Below, piece by piece: positions 2,088 through 33,744 of a DNA stretch of 37,974 nt. Location of the stretch: positions 1 through 37,974 of the forward strand of contig JAJZPM010000037.1 of NCBI GenBank assembly GCA_021811105.1, read 5' to 3'. Under the pieces are notes generated by a model. The model saw nothing but the letters and a program-made list of their open reading frames with translations. It searched no databases and had not been told where the DNA came from. Both the position numbers and the translations under genes were made by a program. Within the stretch, counting starts at the first letter, position 1. Each line of letters begins with the position of its first letter. The stretch comes from Nitrospirota bacterium (GTDB taxonomy: Bacteria; Nitrospirota; Thermodesulfovibrionia; Thermodesulfovibrionales; UBA6898).

Positions 2088-2106
2088 TCCCGATAACCTA
2101 TCGGGA
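2088..2106. repeat. Inverted repeat downstream of the selenoprotein gene
   Basis: TCCCGATA and TATCGGGA are exact inverse complements separated by ACC, giving an 8-bp stem just past the end of the minus-strand gene at 2116. A weak T-rich tract lies further along on the minus strand, but no T-run follows the stem directly. It could be a rho-independent-like 3' end or only a repeat. The rest of 1868-2115 holds no gene that I can support. Confidence 0.4.
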
Positions 2107-2115
2107 TCAGACCCC

Positions 2116-2319
2116 TCAGGATCCCCCGTAGCCGACTGAAACTTTTTCACCCTCAACGACAACAGGGACCTGCCTGACGCCCTTTGAAAGCCTGAGCATT
2201 TCCTCAAGTTTTACAGGGTCTTTCTTCACATCAAAATACTGAGCAGCGGTGTAGGCTGACCTAGCCTTTTCAGTGTAAGGTCAGCCGGCCTTGCCGTAAA
2301 TAATGACTTCCGCAGCCAT
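2116..2319 (-). CDS. Glutaredoxin-like selenoprotein (UXX-star family-like), in-frame UGA = Sec
   Basis: Reading through one TGA (2283-2281) gives a 67-residue protein: MAAEVIIYGKAG-U-PYTEKARSAY, then KLEEMLRLSKGVRQVPVVVE, ending VSVGYGGS. This is a compact thioredoxin fold with the redox motif U-P-Y-T where glutaredoxin has C-P-Y-C. The cis-Pro segment (RQVPVV) and the terminal GYGG are also glutaredoxin-like. The TGA falls exactly at the catalytic Cys position, and the frame stays open with conserved-looking sequence for 54 codons beyond it. A GGAGGT site sits four bases before the ATG at 2319. A hairpin (2254-2286) encloses the UGA. From memory it matches the small UXX-star (seleno)protein family. 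It probably acts as a cytosolic thiol/selenol redox protein. It lies 30 bases downstream of a small membrane-protein gene on the same strand. Confidence 0.85.
2254..2286 (-). promoter_or_regulatory. Bacterial SECIS-like hairpin around the UGA codon
   Basis: On the minus strand GGCTGACCT (2286-2278) pairs perfectly with AGGTCAGCC (2262-2254), a 9-bp stem closed by a 15-base loop TACACTGAAAAGGCT. The UGA lies in the 5' arm. Bacterial SECIS elements are hairpins at or immediately 3' of the Sec UGA inside the coding region and bind SelB through the loop. Placement and stem strength fit. The loop has G residues, but I cannot confirm SelB recognition from sequence alone. Confidence 0.75.
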
Positions 2320-2349
2320 TGGACCTCCGATGGAATTTTTTAAATCCGC

Positions 2350-27546: not shown

Positions 27547-28809
27547 ATGCGGTGTATTTTTCGAAAGTCGTTTATTTTTTCAATCGTGCTTTTGACTTCT
27601 TTGCTTGCATCAGCCGCAGTCCACGCTGAGCCGCTAAGATTCTCGTCTTCCACTCAATTCCTTTGGGGTGACGATCTGCTTGGGGCAAACCAGGCGATCC
27701 TCGCGCAGTACCTGAGAATGAATTATGTCCCTGAAGGAAAACCCTTCTCGATCACGGGCTACGGACGGGTCTGGAAGGACTTCGGCAGCCCCGACGTGAG
27801 GAGCAATGACTTCGAGGGGAGGCTTTACTATCTCTATGTCGATTATGCCTTTGCCCCGCAGATCACCACCCGCATAGGTAGACAGTTCACCAACTTCACG
27901 GCAGGTACAGCTCTGATGGACGGGGTGCGCCTGGATGTAAGCGATATCGGCCCCGTCGGCATTACGCTGGCGGGGGGAAGGAATGTCATATTTTCCCTGG
28001 ATTCAGAGTTCACGAGGGACGGAAACTATTTCGTCGGGGTGGATGTGCATCTGCAGGACGTGAAGAACACGCAACTGGGAATAAGCTACGCCAGGAAGTA
28101 TGACGAGTCCGACCTCGCAAGAGAAGAACTCGGCATGAACTTCAGGTACTACTTCAAGATGGCGAGCCCATACGTCGAGTTGAAGTACGATGTCGTTTCG
28201 GAGGTCTTCGACGAGGCGACGGTGGGAGTAGATTTGTTCCCGATTCCCAACCTTAAGGTGAAGGCCGAGTTCTATCACTCCTATCCGACGTTCGACACCA
28301 CGTCGATCTATAGTGTTTTTGCGGTGGACAAGTACCGCGAATATCTGATTTTGGTGGAGTACAACCTCTCGGTGCCCGTGACTGTGTATGCCTCGTATAA
28401 GCGACAGGATTATGAGGAGGATACCAACGCCGATGTCTACACCATAGGCGCACGGGCACACCCCATGGACAAACTGAGCCTCAACGCCTCTTTCGATTAC
28501 CGGAAGGGATACACCGGCTATGCATATGACACCTCCGCGGGGAAAACTAATACCGACGGCAAACTCTATGGTTTCGAGGTATACGGCGATTACAAGCTCA
28601 GAAAGGACATCATCGTCTTCGCCGGTGCCCAGTTCGACACGTACGACAGACCCGAGCTGAACGGGAGCAACGACGCGAGACGTTACTGGGCCGGCGGCCG
28701 ATGGATCGCAACGAAAAACCTTGCGGTCACCGCAAGAATCGAAGACAACGACAACCCGAACTTTTCTCACAGATTTTTGGGCCGGGTTGCCCTTGACTGG
28801 AATCTCTAA
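27547..28809 (+). CDS. Outer-membrane beta-barrel of a porin-cytochrome conduit
   Basis: The product is 420 residues with a signal peptide (to about 27, AAVHAEP). The mature part is nearly all amphipathic strands with periodic aromatics (GRLYYLYVDYAFA, FVGVDVHLQDVKNTQLGISY, YHSYPTFDTTSIYSVFAVD, FLGRVALDWNL), and it ends near a short strand as outer-membrane barrels do. It is directly followed by a periplasmic-type multihaem cytochrome (15 bases) and a lipoprotein multihaem cytochrome, the gene trio of porin-cytochrome complexes that carry electrons across the outer membrane. A paralogous fragment (32382-33108) lies 3.6 kb downstream, with the DVKNTxLGISYARKYDESDL block almost identical. Confidence 0.8.
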   Translation: MRCIFRKSFIFSIVLLTSLLASAAVHAEPLRFSSSTQFLWGDDLLGANQAILAQYLRMNYVPEGKPFSITGYGRVWKDFGSPDVRSNDFEGRLYYLYVDYAFAPQITTRIGRQFTNFTAGTALMDGVRLDVSDIGPVGITLAGGRNVIFSLDSEFTRDGNYFVGVDVHLQDVKNTQLGISYARKYDESDLAREELGMNFRYYFKMASPYVELKYDVVSEVFDEATVGVDLFPIPNLKVKAEFYHSYPTFDTTSIYSVFAVDKYREYLILVEYNLSVPVTVYASYKRQDYEEDTNADVYTIGARAHPMDKLSLNASFDYRKGYTGYAYDTSAGKTNTDGKLYGFEVYGDYKLRKDIIVFAGAQFDTYDRPELNGSNDARRYWAGGRWIATKNLAVTARIEDNDNPNFSHRFLGRVALDWNL

Positions 28810-29601: not shown

Positions 29602-29670
29602 ATATTCGCAGATATGCATAATAGAGGAGGAATAAACCCTATGCCACTAACATCTCAGAAGGAGGGAGAT

Positions 29671-31863
29671 ATGATTAAGTCGTTTCGATTCGTTATCGTC
29701 TCGCTATGTCTTTTCACGGCGGCGTCTCTGCTGACCGGCTGCGGAAGCGGCAAGAAGGAAGGCGTCGAAAGTCCGCTCGGCCAGGCGACCAGGGTTGGCT
29801 CGGAAAGCTGCACCAACGTATGCCACGCGGCAACGGTAGACGTCACCGGCGACCAGATCGCGGTCACATGGGCGAATACTACGCACACGACGGTCGACAA
29901 TGTCCAGTGCGAGGACTGCCATGGCCCTGCCAGCCTGCACTGGGGCGTCGGTCCGATTCCGTTTCCAACTCCCGAGTCGGCACAGTGTCAGGTCTGCCAC
30001 GGCAAGGCCGGCTTCAATGCAACTGCTCACGACAACCAGCATATTCCGGGCGGGGTATTCGGTCCTGACAAGTTTTTCTTCCAGGGCGATGCGCTAAACA
30101 GCGGCCAGGCAACAATCCAGGGCGTCCCGGAATTTCTGCCGGACGGCGTAACCCCGGTTACTCATGCGGAGCATATTCAGGAGTGTTCAAGGTGTCACAA
30201 TCCCAAGCAGAGGTTTGAGTTTGCAAACGGCGATGCGAGCGGGGAGCTTGTGAAGCCCGATCCCAACAACATGCCGAATCCTGAAGTCGGCTGCGCGGGC
30301 TGCCATGACGCGCACCAGACGCAGCAGATGGTGACGATACCGCAACGGACGTCGCCGGTCGGATATCCCATTTTCAGGAGATATTTCATCGATCCTGCAA
30401 CCGGTGCACAGGTCAATTCCAACGACCCCAACGGTCAGCATCTGGCGGGATTCATCTTCCAGCCCAACGGCGCGGCTATAGGAGGGACGGTTTCGGGGAA
30501 GAACAATGAGATCAATGTGGAGCGCACCTGCGCATCGTGTCACACCAAAGGAAAGTATCAATACAGCCAGTTGCCGACGCATCAGGAAAACGTGTACACC
30601 CAGTGGACAAACTCCGGCCATGGCACGCGTAACGATCCCGCATTCGCGGAATTTTCGGCCAACCCGCCGGCCTATACGAATCCTGATACGGGCGAGACAT
30701 ATCCGGTCGGCACGCATGCGCCTTCATATCCGATCGATATGGCGCTGAGCAAGTTCGGCACGACCGCAAACACCACACAGAATGCGGGTAACAACGTTTA
30801 CGCATGCTTCCACTGCCATAACGGCATAGGGTCCAATGTATGGCAGGAGGACGCGCAGGGCACACCGGACGCCGACGTTGTATTCGGCGACGAGCCTGTC
30901 ACCTGCATCACCTGCCATGCTCCTCACGGGAACCCGACAGGGACGACCCATCAGGTGAAAGTACCGGTGAAGATGACCCAATACTCATCAAGCTCCATCA
31001 CAATCAATGGTAATGTTTTTCTTGACAATACCCCTCTTCCACCGCTCGACAAGACAGGAAACGGTACCATCTGTATCTTCTGCCACCAGGGAAGGGAAAG
31101 CGGCCTGACCCTTTACGTTACGAAGCTTGCGGCCGGCAAGACGATCACCGGCAGCTTTTTCAACCCCCATTATCTCGGCACTGCTGCCATGCTCTGGGGC
31201 GTCAATGCCTATGAATATGCGGGCAAGTCTTATACCGCCAACTTCGCCCATCAGGGCGCGAACTGCCCGACATGCCATATGGCCAATCCGACAGACGATA
31301 ATCTGAACGGCGGTCATACCTGGTGGCCGAACGTAGCAACGTGTAACGTCGCGGCATGTCACGGAGGCTTTGGTTCTATCGCGGCCGATCCGACTTCGGA
31401 CAATGGCCCTGCGAGCCCGGATGTCGCCAATTACCGCGCGAGCTTCGATACGAACAACTACACGGGAGACCCCGGAGGCGCCTCGCTTTCAATCGCGGAC
31501 TCGATCCGGGTACTGCAGCAGAAAATCATCGCAATTTTTGCCTCAAGAGGGGTTGAGTACGACGATCTCCACTATCCCTACTTCTTCCAGGCAGGCAAGC
31601 CGCACACGAGCGCTAACGCATTCACCCAATGGACGCCTTCTTTATACAAGGCGGCCTTCAATCTGTCGTTCTCTATTAAGGGACTTCCCTCCGGGGCAGA
31701 GTCCCAGGCTAACGTGCCGAACTCGTCTGCAGCTGTGCACGACTACAAGTACGTCATCCAGCTTCTGCTGGACGGGTATGAGGACCTGACTGGAGTTCCT
31801 CTGGCCGGCGCATTCAGACCTGTTGGGACAAGACCTGCGACCGTATACGGTCCCGGCCAGTAG
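29671..31863 (+). CDS. Outer-surface lipoprotein multihaem c-type cytochrome, up to 11 haems
   Basis: The start at 29671 has AGAAGGAGGGAGAT just before it and gives 730 residues; an earlier start would add 19 residues and spoil the signal. The lipobox is LLTGC, so the mature N-terminal Cys is acylated. Nine canonical sites are seen (CEDCH, CQVCH, CSRCH, CAGCH, CASCH, CFHCH, CITCH, CIFCH, CPTCH) plus two irregular ones: CTNVCH (one extra residue) near the N-terminus and CNVAACH (two extra) near residue 580. The last 130 residues have no haem site and are rich in aromatics (DLHYPYFFQAGK). It is the probable terminal reductase or electron outlet of the conduit. A strong terminator follows at 31893. 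Confidence 0.9.
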   Translation: MIKSFRFVIVSLCLFTAASLLTGCGSGKKEGVESPLGQATRVGSESCTNVCHAATVDVTGDQIAVTWANTTHTTVDNVQCEDCHGPASLHWGVGPIPFPTPESAQCQVCHGKAGFNATAHDNQHIPGGVFGPDKFFFQGDALNSGQATIQGVPEFLPDGVTPVTHAEHIQECSRCHNPKQRFEFANGDASGELVKPDPNNMPNPEVGCAGCHDAHQTQQMVTIPQRTSPVGYPIFRRYFIDPATGAQVNSNDPNGQHLAGFIFQPNGAAIGGTVSGKNNEINVERTCASCHTKGKYQYSQLPTHQENVYTQWTNSGHGTRNDPAFAEFSANPPAYTNPDTGETYPVGTHAPSYPIDMALSKFGTTANTTQNAGNNVYACFHCHNGIGSNVWQEDAQGTPDADVVFGDEPVTCITCHAPHGNPTGTTHQVKVPVKMTQYSSSSITINGNVFLDNTPLPPLDKTGNGTICIFCHQGRESGLTLYVTKLAAGKTITGSFFNPHYLGTAAMLWGVNAYEYAGKSYTANFAHQGANCPTCHMANPTDDNLNGGHTWWPNVATCNVAACHGGFGSIAADPTSDNGPASPDVANYRASFDTNNYTGDPGGASLSIADSIRVLQQKIIAIFASRGVEYDDLHYPYFFQAGKPHTSANAFTQWTPSLYKAAFNLSFSIKGLPSGAESQANVPNSSAAVHDYKYVIQLLLDGYEDLTGVPLAGAFRPVGTRPATVYGPGQ

Positions 31864-32381: not shown

Positions 32382-33108
32382 ATAGGTAGACAGTTCACCA
32401 ACTTCACGGCAGGTACATCACTGATGGACGGGGCGCGCCTTGATGTGAGCAGTATCGGCCCTGTCGGTATTACGCTTGCAGGTGGCAGAGACGTCATCAA
32501 TACTCTCGATGGCGCATACAGCAGAAACGGCAACTATTTCGTCGGGGTGGACGTGCATCTGCAGGACGTGAAGAATACCGAGCTGGGCATCAGCTACGCC
32601 AGGAAGTATGACGAGTCCGACCTCGCACGGGAAGAGCTCGGGATGAACTTCAGGTACAACTACAAGATCGTAAGCCCCTACGTCGAGCTGAACTATGATG
32701 TCACCTCCGAAGTCTTCGACGAGGCGACGCTCGGTGTCGAAGTGTATCCCATGGACAAACTGCTTTTAAAGGGGGAGTTCTACCACTCCTACCCGACGTT
32801 CGACGCCACTTCCATCTACAGTGTCTTTGCGGTGGATAAATATCGCGAATACATGGTCTCGGCGGAATACAGGATCAGCAGCCCGGTTTCCGTCTTCGCA
32901 TCATATGTGAAGCAGACCTATGAAGAAGACTCCAATGCGGACGTCTTCAGAGTGGGCGCACGGTTAGTCCCGGTTGAGAAGCTGGCGGTCAACGCCTCCG
33001 TGGATTACCGCAATGGCTACGGCGGAAACCTGTGGGGCTTTGAAGTTACCGGCGACTACAGGATAAACGAGAAGATCGCGGTCGCCGCGGGCGTGCAGTA
33101 CGAACGGG
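32370..33108 (+). pseudogene. Fragment of a second conduit barrel gene
   Basis: The frame opens at 32370 after a stop at 32367. From 32382 (IGRQFTNFTAG) to about 33105 it aligns with residues 110-365 of the intact barrel at 27547; blocks such as FVGVDVHLQDVKN, GISYARKYDESDLAREELGM and FHSYPTF-like YHSYPTFDATSIYSVFAVD are near-identical, so this is a paralogue rather than chance. The first 109 residues, including the signal peptide, and the last 55 are gone. At about 33106 the barrel sequence stops and, in another frame, cytochrome sequence begins. A product would be neither exported nor foldable. The frame continues to 33365 in chimaeric translation, which is not meaningful. Confidence 0.88.
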
Positions 33109-33744
33109 CCCTGCGTCACCTGCCACATGCAGGCGACCGGCCGGCCGACAAGGACCACGAGCCACAGCCTGGCTATCGACATAAATGCCGCCAGCGAGGT
33201 CTGCATCAACTGCCACGGCACCGAGGTCGATACGGCGGAACATCTGGAAGAGTTCCTGACGGAACAGTCAACGGTATTCCAGGATGCGCTGACCCTGGCA
33301 TTGACCGTTCTCAGGAACAAGTACAATATCTCGTACAATGCTGCGGTATATCCGTACTTCTATGACCTTACGAAAGATCCGAGCGGCAAGACTGCGGTCA
33401 AGGACTGGACTCGCGGCACAGGCGATCAGGCATTCGGCAAGAAGCTGATGGGTGCATGCTTCAACATCAATGTGCTCAACCGCGAGCCGGCTGCCTTTGC
33501 ACATGCAAGGACGTATTCCCGCAGGCTGATCTACGACACCATCGACTTCCTCGATGACGGCACGATCAACCTTTCCGCCAGCGCCACGGCGGTAGCCACT
33601 TCCCCTTCCGTTTACGGCAAGGGCGAAAGCGCATACACCGACGGCACCCGGTCGCAGCTGGCACCCGGTACCACCGACGCTATGCTCTTTCTGATCAACT
33701 GGAGCCGCAGCACCGGCAAGTGGGTCACGCCGGAGCGCCCGTAA
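33109..33744 (+). pseudogene. C-terminal fragment of a second multihaem cytochrome
   Basis: In the +1 frame relative to the barrel fragment, sequence begins GPCVTCHMQATGRPTRTTSH and contains CVTCH and CINCH, then a haem-free tail (LRNKYNISYNAAVYPYFYDL, AFGKKLMGACFNINVLNREP, YSRRLIYDTIDFLDDGTINL) to 33744. The tail has the same design as the C-terminal 130 residues of the lipoprotein cytochrome at 29671 (DSIRVLQQKI, DDLHYPYFF, YKYVIQLLLDGYED). An ATG at 33127 gives 205 codons but removes one haem and leaves no signal peptide, so it is a remnant. A terminator follows at 33811. Confidence 0.85.

What the first reader, a model, noticed from the sequence alone, without database searches (positions are those of the whole stretch)
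2116..2319. Unannotated selenoprotein: UGA in a glutaredoxin-like active site with a SECIS-type hairpin
Seen: a 68-codon frame with one in-frame TGA at codon 13, a GGAGGT site, a redox loop U-P-Y-T, and a perfect 9-bp stem (2286-2278 with 2262-2254) around the UGA. Known: bacterial Sec insertion needs a hairpin at or just after the UGA, and Sec replaces catalytic Cys in redox folds. Inference: this is a UXX-star-like selenoprotein. Standard gene callers would stop at the TGA or start after it.
Basis: partly seen in the sequence, partly recalled or inferred. Interest (0 to 1): 0.85.

Follow-up and report, generated by a model that had tools for sequence, protein, structure and literature searches.

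The report
Two-selenocysteine glutaredoxin-like small protein
The spot encodes a tiny glutaredoxin-like protein of a known bacterial family that reads two UGA "stop" codons as selenocysteine, so the suspected selenoprotein looks real but is three residues longer than first read, and its kind is already described.

Summary
The minus-strand frame is a member of UXX-star selenoprotein family 1 (NCBIfam NF041114, 110 bits against a cut-off of 72). The genome has selA next to selB, selD (itself with an in-frame UGA) and a tRNA-Sec with anticodon UCA.

In 34 family members (window included) the frame continues UGA-Gly-Val-stop; Gly and Val use all four of their codons, and the stop is TAA, TAG or TGA about equally. 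The gene is therefore 2107-2319(-), 70 aa, with Sec13, Sec68 and a true stop at 2107-2109.

Correction 2: the 9-bp stem around the first UGA is not the conserved SECIS. A 5-bp hairpin (2267-2253) beats codon-preserving shuffles (0 of 2000 reach it); the 9-bp stem does not. A second SECIS-like hairpin lies just after the true stop (2106-2088).

The protein is a truncated glutaredoxin with Sec in place of the catalytic Cys. Redox or metal-ligand roles are inferred, not shown. The family, with its two Sec residues, is published, so this is a new member of a known kind.

The parts
2107..2319 (-). UXX-star family 1 selenoprotein gene, 70 aa plus stop (MAAEVIIYGKAGUPYTEKARSAYTAAQYFDVKKDPVKLEEMLRLSKGVRQVPVVVEGEKVSVGYGGSUGV*)
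   Evidence: NF041114 109.9 bits vs cut-off 72, profile 1-70 of 70 when read through both TGAs; relatives
2323..2328 (-). GGAGGT ribosome-binding site, 3 nt before the ATG
   Evidence: sequence
2281..2283 (-). UGA codon 13, first selenocysteine, at the place of the catalytic Cys of glutaredoxins
   Evidence: TGA in 36 of 39 loci with a match; exceptions are TGC in L056, TAA in L025, and the ordinary glutaredoxin L059 with TGC; alignment to glutaredoxin CPY
2253..2267 (-). SECIS 1: 5-bp hairpin AGGCU-AGGUC-AGCCU, apical loop 18 nt after UGA13
   Evidence: 35 of 36 family members keep at least 4 of 5 pairs; 150 of 170 Watson-Crick cells vs 126.4 +/- 3.2 in codon-preserving shuffles, 0 of 2000
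2116..2118 (-).
   Evidence: TGA in all 36 loci with a parsed tail, followed by Gly-Val-stop
2107..2109 (-). true stop codon, TGA; the homologous position is TAA, TGA or TAG in 33 of 34 family members
2088..2106 (-). SECIS 2: hairpin UCCCGAUA-GGU-UAUCGGGA, loop 17 nt after UGA68 and 8 nt after the stop UGA; it lies wholly beyond the stop
   Evidence: 8-bp stem, -9.8 kcal/mol; 32 of 34 family members have such a hairpin vs 5.3 +/- 1.9 in shuffles

Best explanation
The gene at 2107-2319(-) encodes a 70-residue glutaredoxin-fold selenoprotein (UXX-star family 1) with two selenocysteines. Sec13 sits in the place of the nucleophilic Cys (GUPYT); Sec68 is followed by only two residues (GGS-U-G-V-stop). 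SelB with Sec-tRNA(UCA) decodes UGA13 with a hairpin whose AGGUC loop lies 18 nt downstream, and UGA68 with a second hairpin whose GGU loop lies 17 nt downstream, beyond the stop codon. The true stop is also UGA but lies only 8 nt from that loop, outside the 16-37 nt range of the published SECIS model, which would explain why it terminates (inferred). The protein is probably a small redox protein: Sec13 attacks a disulfide, selenium or metal(loid) substrate, and Sec68, on the tail next to the Gly-Gly that in glutaredoxins borders the active site, acts as resolving residue or second ligand. The sequence features are shown; translation and chemistry are inferred.
For: Family: NF041114 above its curated cut-off, full-length 1-70/70 when both TGAs are read; all 8 relatives from public genomes aligned with it also match. 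Sec codon 1: TGA at codon 13 in 36 of 39 loci, aligned with the catalytic Cys of solved glutaredoxins. Sec codon 2: after it Gly in 31 of 34 and Val in 32 of 34 members with all four codons of each, then a stop in 33 of 34 (12 TAA, 11 TGA, 10 TAG), while the codons beyond are not conserved as protein. SECIS 1 by codon-preserving shuffles; SECIS 2 by dinucleotide shuffles. Machinery: selA 614 bits, selB 373 bits adjacent on the same contig, selD 343 bits with an in-frame TGA, tRNA-Sec UCA. Fold: predicted beta-alpha-beta-alpha-beta-beta, pLDDT 74; best PDB match Archaeoglobus glutaredoxin, TM 0.77. Literature: PMC13188914 Table 1 lists NF041114 with motif UxxT and 2 Sec and gives the 16-37 nt spacing rule.
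Against: No expression or mass-spectrometry data. One relative has TAA at codon 13 (L025) and one appears frameshifted near the end (L029). The gene is patchy (31 clear genomes of 121) and selA is nearly universal in the order (112 of 121), so co-occurrence with the Sec machinery adds little; one genome with the gene (G057) shows no selA match. Redox or metal function is inferred only; the model's C-terminal tail is low confidence (pLDDT 53), so the Sec13-Sec68 distance is unknown.
Confidence: 0.93

Rival explanations
1. One reading: a one-Sec, 67-residue protein that ends at UGA68, with the 9-bp stem around UGA13 as SECIS.
For: The 9-bp stem exists and is the most stable local fold in this sequence; UGA68 would be a legitimate stop.
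Against: Gly-Val-stop after UGA68 is conserved with synonymous variation in 34 family members; a SECIS-like hairpin follows UGA68; the curated profile runs to position 70; the 9-bp stem is not conserved beyond coding constraint.
Confidence: 0.03
2. Decayed gene or sequencing artefact: the TGA is a plain stop and no full protein is made.
For: One relative (L025) carries TAA at codon 13 and another appears frameshifted (L029), so some copies do decay or are mis-assembled.
Against: The same TGA occurs in dozens of separately assembled genomes across several families and phyla, the protein sequence on both sides is under constraint, and the full Sec machinery is present.
Confidence: 0.02
3. Same two-Sec protein, but its job is metal or metalloid binding (Sec13 and Sec68 as a pair of ligands) and not disulfide redox chemistry.
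For: PMC13188914 suggests that Sec in the UXX-star family may be a metal-binding ligand; the tail Sec is nearly invariant and lies close in sequence to the Gly-Gly that borders the glutaredoxin active site.
Against: Glutaredoxin fold with Sec exactly at the catalytic Cys; no widely conserved neighbour gene was found in the flanks examined.
Confidence: 0.35

Closest known systems
UXX-star selenoprotein family 1 (NCBIfam NF041114; 'distant Grx-like protein 1')
   Same: Full-length profile match above the curated cut-off, UxxT motif, two Sec residues, about 70 aa, C-terminal U-X-X-stop.
   Different: Nothing of substance; the true stop here happens to be UGA, as in about a third of the members examined.
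Glutaredoxin 3 / YruB-type glutaredoxins (TIGR02181, TIGR02196; Pfam PF00462)
   Same: Glutaredoxin fold, active-site position, VP segment and Gly-Gly segment.
   Different: Sec for the catalytic Cys, Thr for the second Cys, the last helix is absent, and a second Sec sits in the tail; far below the glutaredoxin equivalog cut-offs.
HUGP/GUXX-star fusion selenoprotein (NF045501)
   Same: Its C-terminal part (profile 165-236) matches this whole protein, including the tail.
   Different: There the domain is fused to a further domain (236 positions); here it stands alone, far below that family's cut-off.

Membership tests
UXX-star selenoprotein family 1 (NF041114) | Score above the curated cut-off over the full profile | tested here: met
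   109.9 bits vs 72, 1-70 of 70
UXX-star selenoprotein family 1 (NF041114) | In-frame UGA at the UxxT site, replacing the glutaredoxin catalytic Cys | tested here: met
   TGA at codon 13 here and in 36 of 39 loci; alignment to glutaredoxins
UXX-star selenoprotein family 1 (NF041114) | C-terminal Sec followed by two residues and a stop (U-X-X-star); two Sec in all | tested here: met
   TGA GGG GTC TGA at 2118-2107; conserved in 34 members; 2 Sec listed in PMC13188914 Table 1
Bacterial selenoprotein gene | selA, selB, selC and selD in the genome | tested here: met
Bacterial SECIS model (3-9 nt loop, 4-16 bp stem, G in the first two loop positions, 16-37 nt spacing, MFE <= -7.5) | Hairpin for UGA68 (2106-2088) | tested here: met
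   8-bp stem, GGU loop, 17 nt spacing, -9.8 kcal/mol
Bacterial SECIS model (3-9 nt loop, 4-16 bp stem, G in the first two loop positions, 16-37 nt spacing, MFE <= -7.5) | Hairpin for UGA13 (2267-2253) | tested here: inconclusive
   Stem 5, loop AGGUC, spacing 18 all fit and the pairs are conserved, but the energy of the hairpin alone is -5 to -6
   15-nt loop beginning UA, 3 nt from the UGA; no conservation beyond coding
Selenoprotein | Selenium actually incorporated at residues 13 and 68 | not testable with these tools
   needs mass spectrometry or 75Se labelling
Glutaredoxin (PF00462) | Domain match and fold | tested here: met
   PF00462 32.8 bits vs 22.9; TM 0.77 to 3ic4
Glutaredoxin (PF00462) | Glutathione-dependent thiol-disulfide activity | not testable with these tools
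   biochemistry needed

The most novel reading that the evidence does not exclude
UXX-star genes whose true stop is also UGA (this one and about a third of the members examined) hold a Sec UGA and a terminating UGA three codons apart under one SECIS that lies beyond the stop. The second of the two might sometimes be read as Sec too, giving a short C-terminal extension (here U-S-R-stop) and a selenium-dependent mixture of tails.
Probability: 0.06. Interest if true: 0.5.

Novelty: new member of a known kind. Interest (0 to 1): 0.27.

Why it matters
It is a clean example of how a standard gene caller would lose a whole protein: with two internal UGAs it would leave at most a 37-residue fragment. 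It also shows that a reader who accepts one recoded UGA can still be fooled by the next one. The tail offers a natural test of SECIS spacing: in the family a Sec UGA and the stop, itself UGA in 11 of 34 members, lie three codons apart ahead of one hairpin.

Tried and rejected
Sec at UAA in G071 was considered and set aside because its tRNA-Sec has anticodon UCA. A conserved gene neighbourhood was sought and not found beyond a few close relatives. Co-occurrence with selA across 121 relatives is uninformative because selA is almost universal there. Rfam at gathering thresholds found only a tRNA-Val in the window, so no SECIS support came from there. A single-sequence search of PDB sequences gave nothing; the profile found glutaredoxins. 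Two papers cited by the review for the UXX-star and related families (Haft and Gwadz 2023; Haft and Tolstoy 2025) are not in the held library, so family knowledge rests on the 2026 review and the NCBIfam models. The 2008 GOS paper, cited by the review for 'distant Grx-like protein 1', does not use that wording in its main text.

Full report
What is there. By itself such a frame is ordinary: 255 ATG-started frames of 60 or more codons with one TGA read through occur in the window. The protein sequence is what matters. Read with Cys for Sec it hits NF041114, UXX-star selenoprotein family 1, at 106 bits against a curated cut-off of 72, and glutaredoxin in Pfam.

The genome can make selenoproteins. 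One selA (614 bits) lies directly before a selB (373 bits) on one contig. selD is itself interrupted by a single TGA in SSCAGU. A tRNA-Sec with anticodon UCA is present. Relatives with named records come from Nitrospiraceae and other Nitrospirota, Syntrophaceae and other deltaproteobacteria, a Desulfovibrio and a Pelotomaculum; the closest is 75% identical (L022 from the same genus, and L051, a Nitrospiraceae record with the same sequence).

The second selenocysteine. Reading 39 loci from 121 related genomes and the public genome set through their TGAs shows the same tail almost everywhere: G-(Y/F/C)-G-G-(S/T/A)-TGA-Gly-Val-stop. In 34 distinct members with a parsed tail, the window included, the codon after the second TGA is Gly in 31 (GGG 10, GGA 7, GGT 7, GGC 7), the next is Val in 32 (all four codons), and the next is a stop in 33 (TAA 12, TGA 11, TAG 10). 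Beyond that no amino acid is conserved. This is the signature of translation through the second TGA. A profile scan of the 70-residue reading matches NF041114 from 1 to 70 of 70, and a 2026 review lists the family with two Sec (PMC13188914, Table 1). The name fits: U-X-X-stop. So the gene is 2107-2319 with its true stop at 2107-2109, which here is again TGA.

The SECIS elements. In 36 members the only hairpin position near UGA13 that is kept in nearly all is +17 to +31 (35 of 36 with at least 4 of 5 pairs), in the window AGGCU-AGGUC-AGCCU at 2267-2253. Shuffling codons within alignment columns, which keeps every protein unchanged, never reached its 150 Watson-Crick cells in 2000 trials (mean 126.4, sd 3.2). 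That stem is nevertheless the most stable fold of this one sequence (-17.4 kcal/mol, against -5 to -6 for the conserved hairpin alone), so in free RNA the two compete; this is the weakest point of the SECIS 1 assignment. The shuffle test does not correct for the relatedness of the sequences. For UGA68, 32 of 34 members have a hairpin of 5 or more pairs with a G at the start of the loop, the loop starting about 14-24 nt downstream, against 5.3 +/- 1.9 in shuffles. In the window it is UCCCGAUA-GGU-UAUCGGGA, 2106-2088, wholly beyond the stop codon. Loop spacings of 18 and 17 nt fit the published 16-37 nt rule; the stop UGA, 8 nt from the loop, does not (PMC13188914). I infer, but have not shown, that this spacing is how the cell tells the two UGAs apart.

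What it does. Sec13 aligns with the catalytic Cys of solved glutaredoxins; the predicted fold is a glutaredoxin without its last helix (mean pLDDT 74; best match 3ic4, TM 0.77). The second position of the CxxC-type motif is Thr. The likely function is that of a small selenol redox protein, with Sec68 on the tail as resolving residue or second ligand; the review raises metal binding for the family. No gene neighbour is conserved widely enough to help, and the tail of the model is too uncertain to place Sec68 against Sec13.

Verdict. The family and its two Sec residues are already described; this locus is one more member. Whether the public annotation of this genome already carries it could not be checked.

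Noticed in passing
L015 1501-1591 / L068 5954-6044 (own genome, contig 10); also L061 in a relative: A tRNA-Cys (anticodon GCA) with a tRNA-Sec-like cloverleaf (62 bits, above the Rfam gathering score) lies between yedF and a selenium-metabolism LysR regulator. It looks like a selC* tRNA-Cys as described for Nitrospirae (PMC7609411).
   Followed up: partly
L025 1501-1704 (G071 contig 63, also within L066): A UXX-star gene with TAA in place of TGA at codon 13, about 0.7 kb from a tRNA-Sec with anticodon UCA and just upstream of a transposase-like gene; a second copy elsewhere in that genome has TGA. Decay or assembly error is likely, but it is unexplained.
   Followed up: partly
L056 66-278: A Pelotomaculum relative has Cys (TGC) at position 13 but keeps TGA at the C-terminal Sec, so the two Sec positions can change independently.
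   Followed up: no
L009 (own genome contig 19): selD is itself a selenoprotein gene, with one in-frame TGA in SSCAGU.
   Followed up: no
window 32424-33744: Two overlapping frames look like part of an outer-membrane porin-like gene and the end of a cytochrome-like gene, resembling the intact pair at 27547-28809 and 29614-31863; possibly a partial duplication with a deletion or an assembly join (by eye).
   Followed up: no
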